Origin: Leucogyrophana mollusca
Taxonomy: Eukaryota; Basidiomycota; Agaricomycetes; Boletales
Assembly (NCBI GenBank): GCA_021014945.1
Contig: MU266717.1
Location: forward strand, 1 to 19,477
Reading direction: 5' to 3'
Length of the DNA: 19,477 nucleotides
The notes under the pieces are model-generated. The model was not told the origin of the DNA. It searched no databases and was given only the letters and a program-made list of their open reading frames with translations. Of this stretch, positions 2,147-17,466 are shown in pieces. The position numbers and the translations under genes were made by a program. Every line of letters begins with the position of its first letter. Position 1 is the first letter of the stretch.

Positions 2147-2872
2147 TCAAGTATTCGTACTATTCCATGCATCGCCCATGTGATTTGTTCGCACAAAATC
2201 ATATGCCTTCTCCCAATCCCGACAAACATGTACAACACCGACCCCATCTGTTCCTGTCAACTTGCCATCGTCGTCCATATTCAAGGGGTCCAGGGTCATG
2301 TCGCTTGCACAGAGAATAGCCTGACGAAGGAGGTTGAGACAATGCTGCGTGTGACCGTCGGCGCTGTCCTTCTCGATGACAGCTTTACGAATCATCTGCA
2401 GGCAGTGCATCTGGTGGAACATGCTGACGCCGAACGCACGGCCTGCATCAGGTGTATTAGTTAAGCAAAGCGCTCCACAACAGAAGGCAACACATCCGAC
2501 TTGCCTTGTTTTCCGAGCCTCACAAAGCCATTTCCTCGCGGAAACAGATCTGTGGTCCGCCATTCTGGCCAGGCTTCTGGATTAGAAATACCAAACTTTG
2601 CAGAATCTTCGATTTGGAGGGCAATGTAGGGGAGATTTATTGGCAGGCTGGCTGGGTGGTCGTCGCCGATGTAGCCTGGATGACGGTCTAAGTATGTGCA
2701 CACTCCAGTTCAATAGCGCGAGAAGCTTACTATAACCACTGTCATCTGCAAGGATACGCGGCCCAGCATTGGCCAGCTCGACGCGGAGACGGTGTATGGT
2801 AAGTGCGTTCAGACCGACACATGTGAGCAACGCCAATACAGCAACAGATAGAACTACGGTTGGTCTCAGCAT
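2147..2872 (-). CDS. UstYa-like (DUF3328) membrane-anchored oxidase
   Basis: Three exons: 2731-2872, 2505-2687 and 2147-2442, giving 206 residues, typical for the family. Residues about 5-25 form one hydrophobic segment (VVLSVAVLALLTCVGLNAL), read as a signal anchor. The central part carries GYIGDDHPASLPINLPY and WPEWRTTDLFPRGNGFVRLG, as in UstYa proteins. Exon 3 carries both family hallmarks, HQMHC and HTQHCLNLLRQ, followed by CASDMTLDP and the C-terminal VHVCRDWEKAYDF. UstYa-family proteins catalyse oxidative cyclisation of Tyr-containing cores of secreted ribosomal peptides (ustiloxin, asperipin, phomopsin); the HxxHC motifs are thought to bind metal. Intron 1 (2688-2730) is GT-AG. Intron 2 (2443-2504) appears to be GC-AG, with donor AAG|GCAAGT and branch site TTAACTAAT; only this junction joins FVRLGKQG to RAFGVSMFHQMHC in frame. 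The gene is divergent from the first peptide precursor. The family call is firm; the substrate is inferred from position. Confidence 0.9.
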
Positions 2873-3686: not shown

Positions 3687-3695
3687 TATATAAAG
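3687..3695 (+). promoter_or_regulatory. TATA box of precursor 1
   Basis: TATATAAAG ends 51 nt before the ATG at 3746. The other two precursor genes carry a similar box at nearly the same distance (8193-8199 and 16819-16826). Confidence 0.7.
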
Positions 3696-3745
3696 GCTGC
3701 CAGTCTTGACTTCAGCATTCTCCCATCCTCTCAAGCTCCACCACA

Positions 3746-5819
3746 ATGCAGCTCACTATCAAGTCTTTTATCATCACTCTCGCTGTGTTCATCGCTGGCG
3801 CTCAGGCTTTACCTGCCCAGGAAAAACGTACGATTCTCCTCTTTGTTGCTCAGCTCGATGTTGCTGACCCGATGCTTAGGTGTTCCGGATCGTGTCAGTA
3901 TTCCCCAGTCGCCTCCAGTACCTCAGAATGCCAGGCTGATATCCTTTTCACGGTATAGAAAGGGTACGATATCACAGGCGGGGACATTGAGAAGCGTAAG
4001 TTGATTAGTATCATTGGCTGAATGCTCGCTGACGAGCAGGATCTCAGGCATTCCCGACCGGGTTAGTCATCTCCCCAAATATTTGACTGCTGACGTTCCC
4101 GACTTATTCTCGGCGCTGTGTACTGTAGAAAGGGTATGATATCACCGGCGGGGACGTTGAGAAGCGTGAGCTTAGTTTCATCTGTGATCCCGCGCGTTCA
4201 CTGACGGCCCATGTTTTAGGTGACCGCGTAAGTGATATGCCAGTACTGCGGATTACTGTCAGCGCCGGGCTGACTCCCCACTATAGAAAGGATATGACAT
4301 CACTGGAGGGGACATTGAGACCCGTAAGCTCAGTTATCTTAGTTGATACGTTCACTTCACTAACATCGAGGTCGTTAGGCGATCGCGTTAGTTGCTTTCT
4401 AGCACTTCAAGGGTTAGCTCGCGCACCTGGCTAATCCCTTGCCTCCACAACAGAAAGGTTACGACATAACTGGTGGGGACATCGAAGCCCGTAAGCCCAA
4501 TCACCTTAGTTGGTTTGACCACATCCCTAACGATTGAAATCTTCAGGCGACCGCGTTAGTTGCTTTGTAACTCTTCAAGGATTCGCTTGGGCATTTGGCT
4601 GATTCCTTGTCTTGCCAATAGAAAGGTTATGACATCACCGGAGGGGACATCGAGACCCGTAAGCTCAGTTATCTTGGTTGATTTGTCCACATCGCTAACG
4701 ATTGAGGTCTTCAGGTGATCGCGTTAGTTTCTTTGTAACTCTTTAAGGGTTCGCTTGGGCATTTGCTGATTCCTTGCCCTTGCAACAGAAAGGTTATGAC
4801 ATCACCGGAGGGGATATCGAGACCCGTAAGCACCGTCATCTTAGTTTATTTGACCACTTCGCTGATGTATGGTGATCTTCAGGTGATCGCGTTCGTTGTT
4901 TTCTAGCACTGCAAGAGTTGGTTTGTACATCTTGCTGATTGATTGCCTCTCCAATAGAAAGGTTATGACATCACTGGCGGGGATATCGAGGCCCGTAAGC
5001 TCAGTTATCTTAGTTTATTTGCTCGCTTCGCTGATGATGGAGATCTTCAGGTGACCGCGTTAGTTGCTTTCTAGCACCTCAAGGGTAAAACGCGCATGTT
5101 GCTAATTTATTGCCTCTTCAATAGAAAGGTTATGACATTACTGGCGGAGATATCGAAACCCGTAAGCAAAGTCATCTTGGTTGATTCGTCCACTTCGCTG
5201 ACAATTGAGGTCTTCAGGTGACCGCGTTGGTTGCTTTCTTGCACTGCTTGGGCATCTGGCTGATTTCTCGCCTCTCCAACAGAAAGGTTACGACATAACT
5301 GGCGGGGATATTGAAACCCGTAAGCACAGTCCTGCGAGTTCATTTGTCCACTTTGCTAACGATTGAGATCTTCAGGTGATCGCGTTAGTTGCTCCCTAAC
5401 GCTTCAAGGGCTGGCTTGGGCATCAGGCTGATTTTTTCCTTCTCCAATAGAAAGGTTATGATATCACTGGCGGGGATATCGAAACCCGTAAGCTCTGTTA
5501 TTCTAATGATGTTCTCCTCGCTAATGATTGAGACCTTCAGGCGACCGCGTTAGTTGCTTTCTGGCCTTTCAAGGGTTGACTTGAGTATCTCGCTGATATA
5601 TTTCCTCTTCAACAGAAAGGTTATGATATAACTGGCGGGGATATCGAGATTCGTGAGCCCACTGTCCTATTTGGTCTGAGATTTCGCTGACGATTGAAAT
5701 TGTCAGGCTCGCCTGACCGGGTTAGTGATGCTCCTGGCACCCAAAGCCGTTTTAGTGCCAAACTGACATTGCTACCACTATAGAAAGGGTACGATATCAC
5801 CGGTGGGGACTTGGCTTGA
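3746..5819 (+). CDS. Precursor 1: secreted 12-repeat peptide precursor in 25 exons
   Basis: Rebuilt as 25 exons encoding 212 residues. Exon 1 (3746-3827) is a signal peptide ending AGAQALPAQEK. Then a microexon and a repeat exon alternate twelve times. Microexons: 3880-3893, 4048-4061, 4220-4227, 4379-4386, 4547-4554, 4715-4722, 4883-4890, 5051-5058, 5218-5225, 5376-5383, 5541-5548, 5707-5720. Repeat exons: 3959-3995, 4129-4165, 4287-4323, 4454-4490, 4622-4658, 4789-4825, 4958-4994, 5125-5161, 5283-5319, 5451-5487, 5616-5652, 5784-5819 (TGA). Repeat exons encode KGYDITGGD[IV]E plus K, T, A or I; the last ends GGDLA. Microexons encode RVPDR, RIPDR, RDR (nine times) and RSPDR. Every repeat exon enters in phase 0 and leaves in phase 1, with c|GTRAG as donor; every microexon is 2 mod 3 and restores the frame. 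The design (signal peptide, then near-identical Tyr-containing units between basic sites) matches Kex2-processed precursors of UstYa-type pathways, and a UstYa-like gene is divergent next door. Splicing is inferred, not observed. A non-modified secreted repeat peptide is the main alternative. Confidence 0.87.
3959..5819 (+). repeat. ~167-bp tandem repeat, 12 units, carrying exons and introns
   Basis: Repeat-exon starts are spaced 170, 158, 167, 168, 167, 169, 167, 158, 168, 165 and 168 bp apart. Similarity covers the introns as well as the exons. The first intron of most units contains versions of CAGTTATCTTAGTTGA, a CACTTCGCTAACGATTGA-like block and TCTTCAG. The second contains TAGTTGCTTTCTAGCACTTC and CTCTCCAAYAG. 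Each inner unit adds 45 coding nt (15 residues) without a frame change, so whole-unit gain or loss by unequal exchange is tolerated. Outer units (1, 2, 12) are more diverged than inner ones. Confidence 0.9.
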
Positions 5820-6352: not shown

Positions 6353-7355
6353 ATGCAAGGAAATCAAGACTCTTACCTGCCTCTTCTGCCCAAAGCTGGA
6401 GACGATGGAGAGGATTCTGAGTTTCCTAACGGCTTGGCCGGAGGGAGCCCACCACCACCACAGTACCTCTCCGCCGTCTCATTGATAACGCTCGTTGTGT
6501 CGCTTTTCTCAGTCCTGGCCACCGTGTGGTTGCATCTCGGTAGCACTTCGTTATCCCTAGACATCTCTAGTCCCCGCTTTGTTGCGTCTTTGCGCAAAGT
6601 GACACCATATCCGAACTTGGACGAGGATATCATTGACCAGGCCATGGAGCTCAAATCTGGTGAGCAGGCGTCTATACCGTGTCGGGTGAAGTGGATAACC
6701 AATATATCGAATTGTAGCGCCCAAGATGTGGTTTCCTTCGTACATCGCGCGTGCCAATGCTGCGGAGCCCGATAGAACTTATAGCAGTTCGAGCACAGTT
6801 ACGCTCAGTCCCTCGGTATGCAAATGAATAATTAAATATTGAACCTCTTTTCATCCGCTGTTCATACAGGATTCTATGTTCTACCGCTTTGGTATCATGA
6901 AGAATGCACCAAACAGCACATGCTACGTTGTGGCAGCTGTCCCGAATGCTTCAAAGCTCCTAGCCGGAAACAAGAGCTACGTCTCTGAGGGAGACGTCAG
7001 CGCCATCGAGATCTGGAAAGTGTCCTATAATGCCTCACAGACCGAGTTGAGCTGGAACACCCGTCCCCGACGCGAGTCACTCTTGGGCACCGTCAGCTTC
7101 ACGCCTCTCCCCGAGGTCTATGACCCCGAAGACGAACGCGACGGCATGGAACTTAGACCGCCGACGCCACTATTTGAATGTGATGGCGATAGTCGGATAG
7201 CGATTGAGGTCACATGTAGCGACTGTAGGCTGAATTTCGAGCAGGTATTCTCGGATCCTCCATTGGGTAAGTGATTTGACCGATCTTCGTGTGCTCTGAT
7301 GATGGTATTGATACTCATGGGTCGCACAGCCTTCGATGTGTGGGTTCTCAAGTAA
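6353..7355 (+). CDS. Single-pass membrane protein with a basidiomycete-type extracellular domain
   Basis: Four exons (6353-6659, 6718-6815, 6870-7266, 7330-7355) join in compatible phases (1, 0, 1) to give 275 residues. The N-terminus is polar and proline-rich (DSYLPLLPK..., GGSPPPPQYL). One hydrophobic segment follows at residues about 42-64 (VSLITLVVSLFSVLATVWL), so the rest should be lumenal or extracellular. That part carries WFPSYIARANAAEPDRTY, SPSDSMFYRF, CYVVAAVP, AIEIWKV, LSWNTRPRRESLLGTV, three late cysteines (ECDGD, VTCSDC) and a terminal AFDVWVLK. Several N-x-S/T sites are present (NST, NAS, NKS). The order resembles uncharacterised proteins common in Agaricomycetes that have a short cytosolic tail, one membrane helix and an ordered beta-rich domain; I know of no established function. 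It lies between two peptide precursors on the same strand, but a role in peptide maturation is only a guess. Confidence 0.8.
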
Positions 7356-8192
7356 ACCTCAATACACATTCGGACCGGAATCTACCTCACAATCACATCC
7401 ATACTTGTCTGTAGTTTGGGCACAATAGCAACTACCTTGCTCGTTTATCTCAAACCATGGCCTCGGATCGATGCTCGAAGCGTCTCTGCAAGTTTCCATG
7501 GAGTCCCATCTCTTGTAGTTCTATCGTATGCTCAAAGCCAAACTGATAGGCCAACATGGTATTTCAGTAAGGAGGTTAGGAGGAGAACTGGATACGTCCT
7601 TCGCGGCAGGCCCCCGACCGGTGACCTATCTCAGTTGCTCCTTTGACTCGCCTTGCTCTGGACCAGTCATGCGGTGTACCACCGATAACCCCCCATCGTC
7701 CAGCGTTATCGCTTTGATCACACTCAGGCTCAGAATTTGAGCATCTTCTCGTGGTAACGTTTAAATTTACAGTGTTCATTGATCACTGTTTCCCCTTACC
7801 CGACTCACCTGACAGCCCCAATGTAGCCGCCGTTGCGGTGGCGCAAAGTCAAGCGTAACTACCATTCAGGGGTCAGGCCGATCAGAGCGGGTCCCATTCC
7901 CACTGCCTGGGCAGAACGCACATGGGACACAGGAGAGTTGATTAGATTTCCGCCTGGGAGAAGATACACTTTGTCGCGCATCAAGATGTACAGGATCATA
8001 TCAATGATAGGCGTGTGCGTCGTTCCTAGTCCGAATGCAATTCTATTCCTTATGGAAGGAACCCGTGGATGATGTCTTTGTAGAGATTGTTCACCTGTGA
8101 TGAGGGCGAAAACATGCACGCTGTAGCGCTCGCACCCCTGCAATCCGCACCGTCTTCCGTGTTCGGTGTTAGCGGGAGCGATACGGAGATCA
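7356..8192. other. Intergenic; one unrecognised minus-strand frame
   Basis: No gene can be supported. A 94-codon minus-strand frame (7859-8143) has a fairly protein-like middle (AFGLGTTHTPIIDMIL, then VYLLPGGNLINSP). It matches no family I recognise and could not be extended by clean introns, so it may be a gene fragment or chance. Confidence 0.4.
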
Positions 8193-8254: not shown

Positions 8255-8864
8255 ATGATGCAGTTCACCATTCTTTCGATTGCAGCTTTCGCCGCCCTTA
8301 TCGCAGGTGTTCAAGCGTTTCCCACACAGGAAAAGCGTTCGTTTGGTTCAAAATTCATTTCCTTGCTGCCGTACTAACGATGTTACTGAATGCCAGGCTC
8401 ACTTGGGGAAGGCGTTAGTTGATGTCATGTTTGTCCAGTGGAACGCCTTGCTGACTTTCTGCTCAACACAGAATGTTTACTACATGGCTGCTGATGTCCC
8501 CATCGTCGAAAAGCGTAAGTTTTACGACAATTACGCCCCAGCAACTCAATTCTGACTGCGATCTCCAGGTTCGTTAGGGGAAGGCGTTAGTCGATGTCAG
8601 GTTTGGTGAGCGGCGCGCAGGCTGACTTTTCGTTCTCTATAGAATGTATACTACATGGCTGCTGACGCGCCTGCTGACAAGCGTAAGCTGAACTACGATA
8701 ATGTTTCAGCACCTCATTGATGACCGCGATTTTCAGGCTCGTTGGGGGAAGGCGTAAGTCGATGTCACATTTGCTCTGTAGCGCCTTTGGCAGGCTGATC
8801 ATCCATGACGACGCAGAACATATATGAAATGGCAAACGACGTCACCGAGAAACGTGATATCTGA
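8255..8864 (+). CDS. Precursor 2: secreted 3-repeat peptide precursor
   Basis: Seven exons: 8255-8336, 8397-8413, 8472-8514, 8569-8585, 8643-8682, 8737-8753 and 8817-8864, ending TGA. Two ATGs are adjacent; the second (8258) aligns with the start of precursor 1 and gives 86 residues. A signal peptide (FAALIAGVQA) is followed by FPTQEKR. Three units follow, each split over a 17-nt microexon encoding RSLGEG and a larger exon: NVYYMAADVPIVEK, NVYYMAADAPADK, and NIYEMANDVTEKRDI before the stop. Every Lys-Arg is split as AAR C|GT. Phases agree at all six junctions, and intron 1 has a canonical branch site (GTACTAACG). The KR sites are all intact, unlike precursor 1. The Tyr-containing cores suit a UstYa-type modifying enzyme, but no separate oxidase was found beside this gene. 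A small unmodified secreted peptide is the alternative. Confidence 0.87.
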
Positions 8865-9814
8865 CCGAGGCGAGTTTCCCATCCAGGGCACTAGCCGTGG
8901 CTCCAAGATTTTTTAATATCCGAAATGCTCAGCTCGTTTACTCGCCGTAAAAGCTTGGTTTCGAGTGCGTACGCTAGCGCATAACGGGGATGAGAATAGG
9001 ATGATGAATCTCGATATTATAGGAATGATCATGAGGTCCTGTACATGTACAACAACGAGAATTGTGTTTATCAATTGTCGGATCAAGCGAGTCTGCCAAC
9101 TATCGTATTCAAGGGGAGAAAGACTTTTTGGATATAGCTTTTCAAGGTGCTGTCGTCCTGACTCCTTGCTCGGCCGCTCGTGGAGATCAAGTTGAAGTAC
9201 GAATCATGTTTCCCAACCTTCTTGGGTTCGTGCTCTTTGTCAACGGGCTGTTTAATAATTGTTGTGTCTTCAATATACTCATTAAGGGGCTCTAGTCCGG
9301 AATACACCCGCATTTCGGTGGGTGACTTTTCTCCGTCATCTCACGTCCCCCTGAACGCGAACGACTGGAACACGTAGTGTGTGCCACTTGATACAGGCGT
9401 GCATATGTACAGCGACTAGAATTTCGACTAATGTTGGCGCTCTGAGATTGATCCTCTTGGTGACCTGTATTTATCGCGCTCTACGGGCGACTCTATTCAC
9501 CATCAATAGCGCAGCCTGCATCACTCGTAGTCTCGCTCGGTATCCTAAGCCCATTGAAGACTTCGAGAGGTTGATCATGTCTAGCGTTGCTGGCTGAGAA
9601 CCTGCGGACGCATGGTTACTTGGGCCTTTCGTGGTGAGGGTCTTTCATTTCAGAATACATTCTCGATTTGACAAACAAACAACGGCGATACATGTACATT
9701 TCACTGGACGTGGTTCCAACTTCATGGCGTGGAGCCGAGGGATCAGAGTCGCCCCTACCTGTAAATGAAAATAAATTAGCTCAGAGACATCGTCGGGACG
9801 ACTGGAAGCTGTAC
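8865..9814. other. Intergenic, no gene recognised
   Basis: Only short frames are present. A perfect 12-bp palindrome TGTACATGTACA occurs at 9040-9051, downstream of precursor 2. No conserved exon chain was found. Confidence 0.4.
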
Positions 9815-10419
9815 CTACTTGTATTGGAGAACTTGAATGGTGCAGTCATCGTGGGACGCATCCGCCCGGTCCTCAGAGATGACCTGCCAGAACACAGGTG
9901 CGTTAGAAACACCGTTAAATCGCATTTCGTTTGCGCCTTACCGTTGCCACAAGGAACTTCATGGGGTAGTCTGGCTCGGGCTGCTTTTCGATCTGAAAAA
10001 GGGGTGGGAGAGTTAATACACAACCAAGAGTGTTCACCACCTCGCCAAAGACTCACCGCAAGAGGGCCGACCATCTTCGAAACATTCCAGCTTCCGCTGC
10101 CGTTGTTGGCGCTGATGGTGACATTGACTGTCGCAGTGAAGGTGAAGGGGCCAAAAGACCAGTATTCGCGATTGTTGAACACATCTCTCATGTGCACCCT
10201 GGTGCCTTGTCCTTCGAAAGTGGCGGACGTGAGCTGGTTTCCGTCCCTGGTTACCTGAATGAAGGCCCTCTGTTCGTAGTCGGCGTTGACGACCTGGCAC
10301 GTCAAACATTAGTCAAAAGCAACGGTCAAAGATAAAAATCGAGCAAGGGATTGACTTACACCAGCAACGAAGCCGCGGTATCCGGGCTCGAGGGTGAAGC
10401 TCACGGGTGTGCTGGACAT
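9815..10419 (-). CDS. Small all-beta protein, LecB-like; copy A, intact
   Basis: Four exons on the minus strand (10360-10419, 10057-10293, 9942-9992, 9815-9883), all joined in phase 0, give 138 residues and a TAG stop. Exon 1 encodes SFTLEPGYRGFVAG. Exon 2 encodes VVNADYEQRAFIQVTRDG, TSATFEGQGTRV, NNREYWSFGPF and SKMVGPLA. Exon 3 begins IEKQPEPDYP. Exon 4 is VISEDRADASHDDCTIQVLQYK. There is no signal peptide, so a cytosolic protein is expected. The order (FTLxPGxRxxV start, TxATFxGQGT in the middle, SEDxxDxxxxD near the end) resembles bacterial fucose-binding lectin II (PA-IIL/LecB), whose C-terminal acidic loop binds calcium and sugar. The loop here keeps several acidic positions but not all, so sugar binding is uncertain. 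The gene model is strong; the fold assignment is from memory of family patterns. Three relatives lie downstream at 12405, 13417 and 15621. Confidence 0.85.
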
Positions 10420-10521
10420 GATGGTAAAGAGGAAGACTGAAAGGCTGAGTTCAAGAGTGAGTAGATAGCTGCAGAGAAAGCCGCGGTTGATTCTGGGATT
10501 TGAGCTACCCTCTTCCAAAGG

Positions 10522-10528: not shown

Positions 10529-12404
10529 GAGGTAGATACAGATGCTTGAGCTCCGCTTCAACACGACGACTTCGCCAATGCGAATGTCCATCGACAAACG
10601 CGAACTAGACCAAGGGTCGACGGCGCCGTGGAATGTTCGACAGCATGAATGGATGAACGACGGTGTCCTGTCTTCGTCCCTGTCCTGAAGCATGGAAGCC
10701 CCGATAATGGAAATTTCGTCACGGGACGATCAATCACGTACTTGACATCCCATTCCTGTCGAGGAAACAAGTCCCTCAAGGGCCATTGAGAACACGGCAT
10801 TTACCCCAGCCTCCGGTTTGTACTGTACCCGTCATCCGTTTTACTGGTGATAATGCCGCTCACAGAGTGCGTCTTGCGTGCAGGTGCTGATGTTCGTGCA
10901 GGTGCTGATGTTCGTGCGTGTGCTGTAGCAATGGCACATTGGTCGGGCGGGTTCCGTGAAAGCCGGGTTGGCTTAGACCTTTATGCATGCTGTCGTGCAA
11001 TGGGACCACTATTACCACAAAAATTCTCCAGAGGCTGGATCTCCAATATATCTTGATAACCCTCTTACAAGAGACAACCTTGAACTGTGCATTCAAAGAA
11101 ATAATGCACTAGCGTTCCCAGCCAGAAGGTTCGGTCACGCGTCTGACAGCGGTCAGGGTCCGGAGGGCTGTTAAGTTGACTCCGGGTCCGAGAGCTCGTG
11201 AATGAGCTAGTTGGTTATGGTTGTGCACAAAGACTGCATCGCGAAGGTCGGCTTCTATGCAGTACGACAGGGATACAGTCATACGCTCGTCCATTGAATG
11301 TTCCGCCCGCGCTAGCAGAGAAAGGCAGACCGCATTTCTTGGATCGCCGGGTGGTCGTACTGTATCTGGGTGAATTAAAACTCTCAACGCCGCCGTTTAA
11401 TTGACGGAGAACCTTCATAGCTATACGCGAAAGCTCCAGTAGAGGCGGAGCTTGCTGCGCACGAGACATTACTTGAAAGTCCGAGTCTTTTCATCAACAT
11501 TTCATTGAGAATGTAGTTTGGAAGGGTGAGGGAACTGGGCCCTGACTTGAAAGACGGATCCCTGAAGGCAGCAAAAAGGTGACAAAGTTCCCGTTCAAGT
11601 CGACACGTTCCGGAGGCTTGGTTGGCATTGCCAATGCCATGTCCAACTAGGGTTTAGTCGACACGACTGACAAGAACTCCGCCGTGAACGAGGCGGAGAC
11701 TGGCGGAGAACGTCGGAGTCTGATCATGTGAGCGCGGCATAATCGCGACGGGCTCAAGTTAAAGGAAATAATACCTGACATCTCGGACATCAACTCAGTG
11801 TCATGTTGTCTGTTCCTGCTTCCAGTGATACAACCGTGTCAACCTCAAGTATCGGTAGCGCTGACCTGTTTAATCTTGGGGCCGCATCTGCGCTGGCCTG
11901 GAGACTATGTCCATGAGCCGCCCCCTCGTGCATAGCTAGAAACCCTCCCTTCACAATTGAAGAGTGAGTTCTCATCCGACTGGATCCTTCCGAACAAAAC
12001 GCGCTGGGGGCTCAACGTCGCGTCTTCCCATCATGCTGTCAAACAACGGTGACTTGCGCCTCCGGCAGTGGACCTATTACCCCGGAGAGCGGAGCTTCTG
12101 GACGCGTAAGAATACAAGGAGGCATTCATCTGCGCGTATGTTACTCGGCGTGATTCGAAGGGTGGACGTCATGTAACCAACGTAAAGCGACCCCAATGCT
12201 CAACAACAATTTCAACCACCTACGTTCCTCATTCAGAAACAAGATCAAGTCTATCGCTAAGCCTGGACACGTTCGTCCATTTCCCTAAGGTGCTCTTAAA
12301 AGTGGGGCGAGCAGCTCTCTCGCCGCTTTGCTACCCCAGTGTTAAACAGAATGTATCTGTACCCAAACGAGCACCGTTTTCCGTCTACTTCCCATCCCTC
12401 AGAC
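10529..12404. other. Intergenic, no gene recognised
   Basis: Many short overlapping frames but no recognisable domain or exon chain. The stretch includes a short tandem repeat at 10877-10912 and several scattered CGGAG words around 11680-11720. Confidence 0.4.
10877..10912 (+). repeat. 18-bp tandem repeat, two exact copies
   Basis: The unit CGTGCAGGTGCTGATGTT occurs twice in direct succession and begins a third time. In one frame it would encode repeated RAGADV, but no gene around it is supported. Confidence 0.8.
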
Positions 12405-12955: not shown

Positions 12956-13416
12956 GGTTTGTCTCCCTCAAGTTCGCTTGCCTAGGTAGTGCTCGGGGGA
13001 TATCCTCACCTCCAGGGCATCACCGTTACTTGATTTCTTGCAAGAATGACTTCAGTACCTTTGTTGGAATTAAGGCGCTCGTGCTCGAAAAGAGAAGAAT
13101 ACAGAGTACCCGTACAAAAAATCACTGTCCTCGGTCTTCCCTCTCTTAAATTGTAGAGAAATCGCTGCGGTATATCGAATAGGTTGAGCTTGGATTTTTG
13201 TTAACTTACGCCGCCTGATATGACTTGCGCCTTCGAACCTCCATTGGCCAAGTGCAGGCCTCACAAACCCCAATCCGCACCAGCTCGTTAACCCCAGTTG
13301 AGGTTTAAATGAAATGACGTCTGCTTACTCAAACCGTTCCATACCATTCGACCATCAGATGTACGGGCCCTGATTTAATCAGTGGGGAATGCGGGCGCTT
13401 GGGTCGATGACCCACC
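12956..13416. other. Intergenic, no gene recognised
   Basis: No domain, no TATA box of good quality and no exon chain seen between copies B and C. Confidence 0.4.
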
Positions 13417-14033
13417 ATGATCAATCTTCCCTCGATATCTTTTCCTCTTCACACCGGTTTTAAAGGATTCGTTGCAGGTGTGAGTGGACCCCTGGAGCTG
13501 CGCAGAGGCGTCGCAGCTGATCTCAAGGCTGTCAGATTACTAATCCACGGGCCAACTACAAGCAGCAGGCGTTCGTCGATGTGCGAGGGTCCGACGGCCA
13601 CACAATTACCTCTACTACCTTTGCTTCAGACGGGATTGGCAGGAGGAAGCCCATGAAACGCACTTCTGAGTCAAAATATTGGAGCTTCGGCCCTTTCGCA
13701 TACGATGCCACGGTCCATGTCACCATATCCTATGATTCCGGGGACGGTTTCAAACCGTCTAAAATGGTTGGCCCTTTGAGGGTGAGTTAATTGCCAGTTC
13801 ACCGCCAGTACAAAGAAAGTTGACCGACTTCTCTTGTTTCTTTCCTCGTAGATCGACAAGAAACCCGAGGATGATTATCCCAAGGAGTTCCACGTGTGGA
13901 CGGTGAGAAGACCCAACATCAGATCAGATGTCAGCTTCAGGCTTGCTCACTTTGAGCCTCCTAGGTCATCTCCGAGGATGGTGCCGATCAATCGCATGAT
14001 GATTGTACAGTTCAAGTGCTTCAGTACAAGTAG
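13417..14033 (+). CDS. Small all-beta protein, LecB-like; copy C, intact
   Basis: Four exons (13417-13479, 13536-13781, 13852-13902, 13965-14033) joined in phase 0 give 142 residues. Exon order and boundaries match copy A exactly. Exon 1 ends FPLHTGFKGFVAG. Exon 2 carries NYKQQAFVDVRGSDG, TITSTTF, KYWSFGPF and SKMVGPLR. Exon 3 begins IDKKPEDDYPKEF. Exon 4 is VISEDGADQSHDDCTVQVLQYK. Relative to copy A it has two extra residues near the start of exon 2 (ITNPRANY instead of VVNADY), and its middle loop lacks the FEGQGT block, reading FASDGIGRRKPMK. It is clearly diverged from copy A, which suggests an older duplication or separate specificity. There is no signal peptide. Confidence 0.85.
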
Positions 14034-15620: not shown

Positions 15621-16297
15621 ATGTCTAGCCCATTCCCGACTTTCACCCTTCAACCTGGCTACCGCGGCTTTGTCGCTGGTGTAAGCGAATACCTCGCTCG
15701 ATTTCTACCCTTAATGATCTCTGACCATCGGCCCCTCCAGGTCGTCAATGCTGACTTTGAGTAGAAGGCGTTCATTGAGGTGACTAGACATGGTACCCAG
15801 CTCACGTCCGCCACTTTCGAGGGGCAAGGCACTAGGGTACACATGAAGAACGTGTTCAACAATCGCGAACACTGGTCTTTCGTCCCGTTCGACTTTACTG
15901 CGACGGTCTGCGTCCCCATCAGCAGCAACAATGGTGGCAGGTCGTGGAACATCTCGAAGATGGTCGGTCCTCTCGCTGTGAGTACATCTTATTTGCGGAA
16001 CGCTTGCCACTGTCTTCTCCTTGCAACCTCCTTTGTAGATCGAGAAGAAGCCTGAACCGGACTATCCCACGGAGTTCCTCGTCGCAACGGTGAGCCTCGA
16101 CTGCGATTTAACATTGGTGGCAGCTTCTTAGGTACGGTTTTCCCGACACCTATATCATCTCCGAGGATAGGGCGGACTATACGGCGGAGCTTTCCATACA
16201 GACGCGGCGGGTTTTGGATCAGAAACGCAGCGAATTTAGGATCAGAAACGTCGGCGAGAGAGAACGGTTCGGGACTGCTGGAGTGCAACAATACTAA
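15621..16297 (+). pseudogene. LecB-like copy D, disrupted
   Basis: Exon 1 (15621-15680, ending PGYRGFVAG), exon 2 (15741-15977) and exon 3 (16039-16089, IEKKPEPDYPTEFLVAT) keep the family's boundaries and phases. In exon 2 codon 8 is TAG (15762-15764) where copy A has CAG (Gln), so translation would stop after 27 residues. Apart from this, 62 of 79 exon-2 residues match copy A. The last exon is recognisable as IISEDRADYTAELSIQ near 16154, but the usual acceptor directly before it is missing; using the upstream AG would shift the frame. The frame through this exon stays open to a TAA at 16295-16297, well beyond the family's usual end. A sequencing error at the TAG is possible, but two independent defects favour a pseudogene. 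Confidence 0.75.
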
Positions 16298-16887: not shown

Positions 16888-17466
16888 ATGCATCTTGCTT
16901 TCACTTTAATCGTGGCTCTTGCCGTCGCTGTTGCGAGCGTCCAGGCTCTGCCTGCACAGGAAAAGCGTGAGCTGAACGTCATTATTGATCTCTGGCACCA
17001 TTGACGATGGCAAACTTCAGGCGGCCCCATCGATCTGGTCAGTCACTTTGTAATACAATTACCTTTGTGTGGCTTTGGACTGATTCTTCGCGGTGTCTCA
17101 TACAGGTGGACTACACCGCCGAAAAGCGTAAGCTGAGCACCCCTACCAGTCCTTGCTACCCGCTAACAATGATGACCCTCAGGTGCGCCGCTGGGAGTTA
17201 GTCGATTTTTCAAATACCCGAGTATTGTCTGCTAAAAACAGTTTCCCGGCACTTCTCGCAATACAGGCCGCCGTGCGTAGCATCCTAGCTCTCTCGCGTT
17301 TTCTTTTGCAGTGAACTAATTTTCGGTGTTTCCTAATATAGTTTCTCGTGAGTCACTTGAGGGTACCCTAATTTATTTGTGTGGCAGACTCATTTGCCGC
17401 CTCGCGTTGTAGTATGAGATCGCAGAGGGCGAGTCTGAGAACACGAAAGGCACCTCCAAGTTGTGA
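16888..17466 (+). CDS. Precursor 3: short secreted peptide precursor, 3' end uncertain
   Basis: Exon 1 (16888-16966) encodes a signal peptide and pro-region ending VASVQALPAQEK, nearly identical in layout to precursors 1 and 2. A 17-nt microexon (17021-17037) gives RGPIDL, exon 3 (17106-17127) gives VDYTAEK, and a 14-nt microexon (17183-17196) gives RAPLG. All four fit the phase pattern of the other precursors. The end is unclear. A 10-nt exon at 17267-17276 (AAV) could follow and then end quickly. Alternatively the gene may continue to 17413-17466, an in-phase stretch encoding YEIAEGESENTKGTSKL and a TGA stop after a TTGTAG acceptor. The second option would need a 216-nt intron, much longer than the rest. 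The downstream half may be degenerate. Confidence 0.7.

What the first reader, a model, noticed from the sequence alone, without database searches (positions are those of the whole stretch)
3746..5819. A peptide precursor gene built from 25 tiny exons and 12 repeated cores
A signal-peptide exon is followed by twelve microexon/repeat-exon pairs that all join in frame and yield a 212-residue product with twelve KGYDITGGD units. Known UstYa-pathway precursors also have a signal peptide and repeated cores, but as far as I recall their repeats are usually carried in one or a few exons. Here every core has its own exon and every linker its own microexon. The exon model is read directly from the sequence; function as a modified-peptide precursor is inference.
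Basis: partly seen in the sequence, partly recalled or inferred. Interest (0 to 1): 0.92.

Follow-up and report, generated by a model that had tools for sequence, protein, structure and literature searches.

The report
Mushroom peptide genes chopped into microexons
A wood-dwelling fungus appears to make small secreted peptides from genes cut into many tiny exons, with an intron inside the codon for the arginine at the end of each unit, which could help explain why such genes have been overlooked in mushrooms; none of this has yet been checked on RNA.

Summary
Window 3746-5819 reads as 25 GT-AG exons giving one 212-residue protein: signal peptide plus twelve KGYDITGGD units, each a core exon of 36-37 nt behind an 8- or 14-nt linker microexon. 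A sister array in the same genome (23 exons, 11 units) shows coding constraint: dN/dS 0.06, no exon gaps, eight gap events in introns. It is not a one-off. The genome (almost surely Leucogyrophana mollusca, Boletales) holds a family of such genes: 14 of 23 candidates modelled to a stop codon, 176 exons (59 of at most 15 nt), 162 introns, all GT-AG. Units use one to four exons. In these models 74 of 74 phase-1 introns split an arginine codon, 55 of them after K or R. Twelve of 21 tabulated signal exons lie head-to-head with a UstYa match within 3.5 kb. Best reading: UstYa-type peptide precursors built of splice cassettes whose borders coincide with protease sites. Transcription, splicing and cross-linking are inferred. 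Against a simple reading, only 3 of this gene's 12 boundaries keep the dibasic KR.

The parts
3687..3694 (+). TATA box (TATATAAA)
   Evidence: 21 of 23 precursor signal exons have TATAWA within 130 nt upstream, 3% of random 130-nt stretches of the window do
3746..3827 (+). exon 1: signal peptide, then EK and the first base of the Arg codon
3880..3995 (+). unit 1: linker microexon 3880-3893 (14 nt), core exon 3959-3995
4048..4165 (+). unit 2: linker microexon 4048-4061 (14 nt), core exon 4129-4165
4220..4323 (+). unit 3: linker microexon 4220-4227 (8 nt), core exon 4287-4323
4379..4490 (+). unit 4: linker microexon 4379-4386, core exon 4454-4490
4547..4658 (+). unit 5: linker microexon 4547-4554, core exon 4622-4658
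4715..4825 (+). unit 6: linker microexon 4715-4722, core exon 4789-4825
4883..4994 (+). unit 7: linker microexon 4883-4890, core exon 4958-4994 (the unit left unpaired against the C270 sister array)
5051..5161 (+). unit 8: linker microexon 5051-5058, core exon 5125-5161
5218..5319 (+). unit 9: linker microexon 5218-5225, core exon 5283-5319
5376..5487 (+). unit 10: linker microexon 5376-5383, core exon 5451-5487
5541..5652 (+). unit 11: linker microexon 5541-5548, core exon 5616-5652
5707..5819 (+). unit 12: linker microexon 5707-5720 (14 nt), last core exon 5784-5819 with stop
2150..2872 (-). UstYa-type oxidase gene (three exons), divergent from the precursor, two HXXHC motifs (HQMHC, HTQHC)
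   Evidence: PF11807 E 3.1e-19 on a spliced protein; annotated protein P0002, 98% identical to it, on a contig of 19477 bases; exon matches; start at 2872
6353..7274 (+). But2-like gene with a hydrophobic N-terminal stretch; conserved exon 6843-7274, full exon structure not worked out; recurrent neighbour, function unknown
   Evidence: PF09792 E 1.8e-4, below cut-off; 7 strong copies in the genome, on contigs that also hold UstYa matches and precursor signal exons
8258..8864 (+). second precursor: exons 8258-8336, 8397-8413, 8472-8514, 8569-8585, 8643-8682, 8737-8753, 8817-8864; 86 aa, linker SLGEG, cores NVYYMAAD (2) and NIYEMAND (1)
16888..17466 (+). third precursor: exons 16888-16966, 17021-17037, 17106-17127, 17183-17196, 17267-17272, 17342-17347, 17413-17466; 65 aa, two 6-nt exons; no TATA motif found upstream

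Best explanation
The array is a working gene for a secreted, multi-core peptide precursor that serves the UstYa-type oxidase encoded head-to-head beside it. Shown by sequence: signal exon; twelve phase-consistent linker-plus-core exon pairs; an intron inside the arginine codon at each unit boundary; purifying selection on the peptide; TATA box; a sister array; a family of such genes, mostly near UstYa genes. Inferred: the two genes share a divergent promoter; short introns are recognised by intron definition, so 8-nt exons can be spliced; the product enters the secretory pathway; Kex2-like cleavage releases IPDRKGYDITGGD-type fragments where KR is kept, and another arginine-specific cut or none occurs at TR/AR boundaries; UstYa oxidises the core at Tyr, perhaps linking Tyr to the residue two places on (Y-D-I here, like Y-A-I-G of ustiloxin). 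Unequal crossing-over between 168-bp exon-intron units changes core number: breakpoints fall in introns and a linker-plus-core pair is 45 (or 51) coding nt, so frame and peptide survive.
For: 25-exon frame and GT-AG; branch points 24 of 24; sister array of 23 exons with dN/dS 0.06; unit pN/pS 0.03; UstYa at 874 bp, head-to-head; genome-wide pattern for the signal-exon end: 13 hits, 0 in the reversed control, 11 of 13 within 15 kb of a UstYa match, such stretches being at most 1.6% of the genome; 14 complete models, 162 introns in phase 0 (88) or 1 (74), none in phase 2; 74 of 74 phase-1 introns split Arg; TATA in 21 of 23; omitting a linker-plus-core pair keeps the frame in 3 of 3 cases tried; period 168.
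Against: No transcript, peptide or enzyme data. Only 3 of 12 boundaries are KR; the rest are TR (6), AR (2), IR (1). 3 of 21 tabulated signal exons (one on C58, two on C267) lie on contigs without a UstYa match, and 6 more have none head-to-head within 3.5 kb. That table was compiled partly from loci fetched because they hold UstYa, so it is biased; the pattern search is less so, although its pattern was drawn from some of those genes, and with one mismatch allowed it gave 23 hits with 2 in the reversed control. Window precursors 2 and 3 are 5.4 and 14 kb from the UstYa gene. The UstYa match beside the C270 sister array is weak (E 5e-4, 37% identity) and may be degenerate.
Confidence: 0.72

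Rival explanations
1. A Kex2-processed repeat protein that yields linear, unmodified signalling peptides; the UstYa neighbour is incidental.
For: Secreted repeat design and KR sites in the family; in a published survey only 103 of 1680 basidiomycete KEPs had a DUF3328 gene nearby (PMC7329392, passages).
Against: 11 of 13 signal-exon pattern hits lie within 15 kb of a UstYa match and 12 of 21 tabulated signal exons are head-to-head with one within 3.5 kb; Tyr in every unit of the array.
Confidence: 0.13
2. A repetitive secreted structural or cell-surface protein: most KR sites are lost, so the 15-residue repeats stay joined.
For: 9 of 12 boundaries here and 8 of 11 in the sister array are not dibasic, and the low dN/dS means these boundaries are held.
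Against: In the other 12 models 49 of 51 split-Arg boundaries are KR or RR; UstYa linkage.
Confidence: 0.1
3. The exon pairs are real but variably spliced, so the gene makes a set of precursors of differing core number (pair skipping) or truncated proteins (microexon skipping). This can hold together with the best explanation.
For: Skipping one linker-plus-core pair keeps the frame in 3 of 3 cases tried; skipping one microexon shifts it in 12 of 12. In relatives, 3- and 6-nt exons could be skipped in frame.
Against: No transcript data; a consensus-like splice signal at every exon favours constitutive inclusion.
Confidence: 0.25
4. A decaying or non-coding tandem repeat whose frame is coincidence.
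For: Tandem DNA arrays are common and no RNA evidence was at hand.
Against: dN/dS 0.06, 0 exon gaps, 24 of 24 branch points; TATA box.
Confidence: 0.02

Closest known systems
Dikaritins (ustiloxin, phomopsin, asperipin-2a precursors with UstYa/DUF3328 oxidases)
   Same: Signal peptide, repeated Tyr-containing units, KR sites in most family members, adjacent UstYa-type oxidase with two HXXHC motifs. The asperipin-2a cluster, like this one as far as seen, has no tyrosinase (review PMC6514808, passages).
   Different: Basidiomycete; each core in its own exon or exons; linkers as microexons; intron in each boundary Arg codon. The exon-by-exon search found one weak tyrosinase match, on another contig, and no S41 peptidase. 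Most KR lost in this one array and its sister.
KEX2-processed repeat proteins (KEPs), Le Marquer 2019 (PMC6339444) and Umemura 2020 (PMC7329392)
   Same: Secreted, repeated, Kex2-type boundaries.
   Different: Those surveys scanned annotated proteins or protein catalogues; the words intron and exon occur 0 times in both main texts (passages). This gene keeps KR at few boundaries and found no true match among predicted proteins of about 117-371 residues.
Epichloecyclin precursor GigA
   Same: Signal, repeats with core and KR sites, Tyr-based ring (PMC6514808, passages).
   Different: Four repeats, in the ascomycete genus Epichloe; its exon structure was not stated in what I saw.
Schistosoma micro-exon genes (MEGs)
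   Same: Secreted products from genes made of very short exons (3-81 bp), hard for automatic annotation (PMC10526429, passages).
   Different: Long introns (0.1-5 kb), exons mostly multiples of 3; in the passages seen, no protease-site rule and no oxidase partner.
Aphid bicycle genes (recalled; no paper seen)
   Same: Secreted proteins from many microexons.
   Different: Animal effectors, no repeated cores (recalled).
Microexons of Phanerochaete P450 genes
   Same: Basidiomycete exons as short as 6 bp with frequent small introns (PMC1184071, passages).
   Different: Small exons in enzyme genes, not described in the passages as tandem cassettes.

Membership tests
Dikaritin (UstYa-pathway) precursor | N-terminal signal peptide | tested here: met
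   A hydropathy scan found the start MQLTIKSFIITLAVFIAGAQALPAQEK; no dedicated signal-peptide predictor was available
Dikaritin (UstYa-pathway) precursor | Highly repeated core sequences | tested here: met
   12 units, 11 in the sister array
Dikaritin (UstYa-pathway) precursor | Kex2 dibasic site between repeats | tested here: not met
   KR at 3 of 12 boundaries in this gene and 3 of 11 in its sister; 49 of 51 split-Arg boundaries in the 12 other models are KR or RR
Dikaritin (UstYa-pathway) precursor | UstYa/DUF3328 gene nearby with two HXXHC motifs | tested here: met
   PF11807, HQMHC and HTQHC read in P0002, 874 bp away; motif as given in PMC12048977 (passages)
Dikaritin (UstYa-pathway) precursor | Oxidatively cyclised product | not testable with these tools
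   needs mass spectrometry
Dikaritin (UstYa-pathway) precursor | Tyrosinase (UstQ/PhomQ) in the cluster (absent from the asperipin-2a cluster) | tested here: inconclusive
   PF00264 gave one weak match in the genome, on contig C5, none on this contig; the search is exon by exon and may miss genes cut by introns
KEP | Signal peptide plus repeats separated by Kex2 sites | tested here: inconclusive
   Signal and repeats met; dibasic sites at 3 of 12 boundaries
Micro-exon gene architecture | Secreted product from many very short exons | tested here: met
   25 exons, 12 of them 8-14 nt; splicing itself is not shown

The most novel reading that the evidence does not exclude
Mushroom-forming fungi hold a hidden class of UstYa-linked precursors in which exons are processing cassettes: an intron interrupts the arginine codon of each protease boundary, a core is assembled from one to four exons down to 6 (perhaps 3) nt, and core number and sequence change by duplicating and mixing exon pairs, possibly also by alternative splicing. 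Annotation-based mining misses them, which would help explain why basidiomycete repeat precursors so rarely seem to have a UstYa gene beside them.
Probability: 0.6. Interest if true: 0.92.

Novelty: new variant of a known kind. Interest (0 to 1): 0.83.

Why it matters
A survey of 1461 fungal assemblies found DUF3328 genes near only 6.1% of basidiomycete KEPs, and its authors wrote that either the cyclisation factor differs between the phyla or cyclisation might hardly occur in Basidiomycota (PMC7329392, passages). A 2025 lichen study found no conserved repeated region in its two DUF3328 clans (PMC12048977, passages). If precursors are cut into 6- to 60-nt exons, mining of annotated proteins would miss them. 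The architecture gives a simple search rule (intron in a boundary Arg codon, phase 0 or 1 introns of about 50-70 nt, divergent UstYa) and makes the missing-precursor question testable. It would also be a clean case of introns serving as recombination buffers for a repeat peptide, and of exon borders that coincide with protease sites.

Tried and rejected
Database search with the 212-residue product: one hit at E up to 1, P0001 (E 3.8e-4), a low-complexity DITGGD protein with no signal or unit structure like this one, rejected. Only proteins of about 117-371 residues were candidates, so a shorter wrong gene model would not have shown. Search with the C364-type product: one hit, P0070 of Suillus ampliporus (E 3.8e-3), a partial protein with a like signal start and EELDSNL repeats, a probable relative (only the 7994 best candidates were scored).

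Rejected as precursors: the C164 pattern hit, which has no signal peptide before it; and, on the matched letters alone without fetching them, the one-mismatch hits on C92, C282, C393, C465 and C485, four of which share nearly the same letters. Of the five hits of the loose scan at four further UstYa matches (C289, C193 twice, C139), two were kept (C289, C193) and three dropped as unlike the family; C139 gave none. A shift control for the exon model was uninformative, since shifts by 3 nt keep most of each exon. Not modelled to a stop: L009 and L013 (cut by an N run and a contig end), L014, L015, L022, L035, L041, L042, L044, nine of 23 signal exons. Exon borders were set by me, by eye or by pattern, so that the frame stays open. 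The 3-nt exons of L020a and L020b can be left out without changing frame and are the least certain.

Structure of the But2-like partner exon from five paralogs: mean pLDDT 39.8, no use, not searched further. Pfam on the first two window precursors gave only matches below cut-off. NCBIfam gave nothing for P0002, the But2-like exon and the 9781-10308 frame. A linker-microexon pattern with up to 2 mismatches hit only this array and its sister, 14 of 14, control 0. Paper searches: for precedents and for the organism; no listing or passage that I saw reports intron-split UstYa precursors, but most subscription papers are not held.

Full report
What is there. The window is contig C391 of a 32.3-Mb assembly in 545 contigs.

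Is it real? A sister array on contig C270 (minus strand, start at 10900) has 23 exons and 11 units, and its protein of 197 residues keeps the same unit types at both ends. With units paired in order (one window unit left over), exons differ at 6.6-6.9% and introns at 13.6-15.1% of sites; the signal exon differs at 2 of 82; no gap lies in an exon, eight gap events lie in introns; 30 synonymous and 7 non-synonymous differences give dN/dS 0.06. The 300 bases on either side differ at 20-24% with 13 gap events each, so introns too are somewhat held. Within the window array the nine 8-nt-linker units give pN/pS 0.03, 0 exon gaps and 79 intron gap events summed over unit pairs. All 24 introns have a CTRAY motif in place (20 of 22 in the sister), against a shuffled mean of 3.1. 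A TATA box lies 57-59 nt before the ATG. On this evidence it is a coding gene under selection. What is missing is RNA.

A family, not one gene. A pattern for the end of the signal exon (A-L-P-x-Q-x-K-R and variants) has 13 hits in the genome and none when read backwards. One (C164) is chance, having no signal peptide. Eleven of 13 lie within 15 kb of a UstYa match, although such stretches make up at most 1.6% of the genome (binomial P 1e-18 treats clustered hits as independent; by contig, 5 of 7, P 3e-7). With one mismatch the pattern gives 23 hits, and 2 in the reversed control. Together with a scan of the fetched UstYa loci and other finds the list grew to 21 signal exons, plus two from a looser scan. 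Of the 21, 12 are head-to-head with a UstYa match within 3.5 kb, 6 have a UstYa match on the contig but farther off or otherwise placed, and 3 (one on C58, two on C267) have none on their contig. The two extra ones are head-to-head at about 0.7 and 0.8 kb by the coordinates. A TATA motif lies within 130 nt before 21 of 23 starts, 16 of them at 57-72 nt and 5 at 80-100 nt, against 3% of random stretches of the window; window precursor 3 and L044 have none, and four start regions were shorter than 130 nt.

The design rule. Fourteen of the 23 were modelled from ATG to stop: 176 exons, 59 of them 15 nt or shorter, 162 introns, every one GT-AG, 46-73 nt, median 57, in phase 0 (88) or phase 1 (74) and never phase 2. 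I set exon borders so that the frame stays open, so openness is not independent evidence; the phase was not chosen. In these models 74 of 74 phase-1 introns fall within an arginine codon: after K in 45, R in 10, T in 12, A in 4, E in 2, I in 1 (67, the other 7). The exon border thus coincides with the expected protease boundary. Units come in four grades: one exon per core (C364, ten of 57 nt), two (this array; the second window precursor; C41 29+49 nt; C86 20+52 nt), three (C58, 17+6+40 nt, six units) and four (C270:2633, 14+6+6+55 nt). The 6-nt exons show a recognisable signature: acceptor, six bases and GTGAGTCACTT has 12 hits in the genome, 11 of them in these genes (from which the pattern was taken), none in the reversed control. 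Since 6-nt exons do not change frame, their inclusion is less certain than that of the 8-, 14- and 17-nt exons. Differences among units of C58 and C270:2633 also favour coding (pN/pS 0.12 and 0.19; 2 exon gap events in C58, 0 in C270:2633).

The other window precursors. At 8258-8864 seven exons give an 86-residue protein with SLGEG linkers (17-nt microexons) and NVYYMAAD-type cores. At 16888-17466 seven exons give 65 residues, with two 6-nt exons. Neither was in the finding.

How it may work. Shown: anatomy, selection, linkage. Inferred: divergent co-expression with UstYa; splicing by intron definition, which short uniform introns would suit and for which basidiomycete P450 genes with exons down to 6 bp are a precedent (PMC1184071, passages); secretion; proteolysis at arginine; oxidation by UstYa. 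Several cores read Tyr-x-Ile, Leu or Met (YDI, YTI, YFL, YFI, YEI, YYM), which recalls YAIG of ustiloxin, while phomopsin has a Tyr-Ile ether ring (PMC6514808, passages); the analogy of position is mine, and other cores do not fit it (YDY on C364, YSA and YAS on C41, YYP on C86). The exon-by-exon searches found one weak tyrosinase match, on another contig, and no S41 peptidase, so a pathway here may be of the lean asperipin kind.

A result against the simple reading. In this array only three of twelve boundaries are KR; six are TR, two AR, one IR, and the sister shows the same trend (3 KR, 6 TR, 2 AR of 11). The arginine and its intron are kept but the lysine is not. Either another arginine-specific cut is used, or Kex2 tolerates TR/AR, or the middle of the array stays joined. 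I hold this as unexplained.

Novelty. Searches of the paper library listed no report of an intron-split UstYa precursor. The two KEP surveys hold the words intron and exon 0 times in the main text, and so does the lichen study; the Agaricomycete KEP study mentions introns once, in cloning (PMC9769878). I saw passages of these, not whole texts, and most subscription papers are not held. A protein search in 5.8 billion sequences, which holds annotated UstYa proteins of this species, returned no true match to the precursor within its length limits. The kind, a UstYa-linked multi-core precursor, is known; the gene design is a new variant and, as a rule of a family, would be surprising.

Noticed in passing
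window 6353-7274: But2-like gene (PF09792 below cut-off) between precursors 1 and 2; 7 strong copies in the genome, on contigs C391, C289, C193, C270 (two) and C41 (two), which also hold UstYa matches and precursor signal exons; an eighth, weak match is on C140: a likely unrecognised cluster partner.
   Followed up: partly
window about 9781-10430 (-), 13411-13790 (+), 15659-16055 (+): Three related genes for a small protein; the first begins like MSSTPVSFTLEPGYRGFVAGV. No Pfam match above cut-off for the pieces tried.
   Followed up: partly
window about 2455-2510 (-): The second intron of the UstYa gene appears to use a GC donor (AG|GCAAGT); the annotated protein P0002 agrees with that junction.
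   Followed up: no
L034, reverse-complement positions about 3720-3850: By eye, a relic of the But2-like gene downstream of the C270 sister array, so the array and its neighbour may have been duplicated together.
   Followed up: no
P0070, Suillus ampliporus: A partial annotated protein with a C364-like signal peptide and EELDSNL repeats suggests the family reaches other Boletales.
   Followed up: partly
L009, reverse-complement position 7535 onward: The C364:3089 array runs into a run of N, so its full core number is unknown.
   Followed up: no
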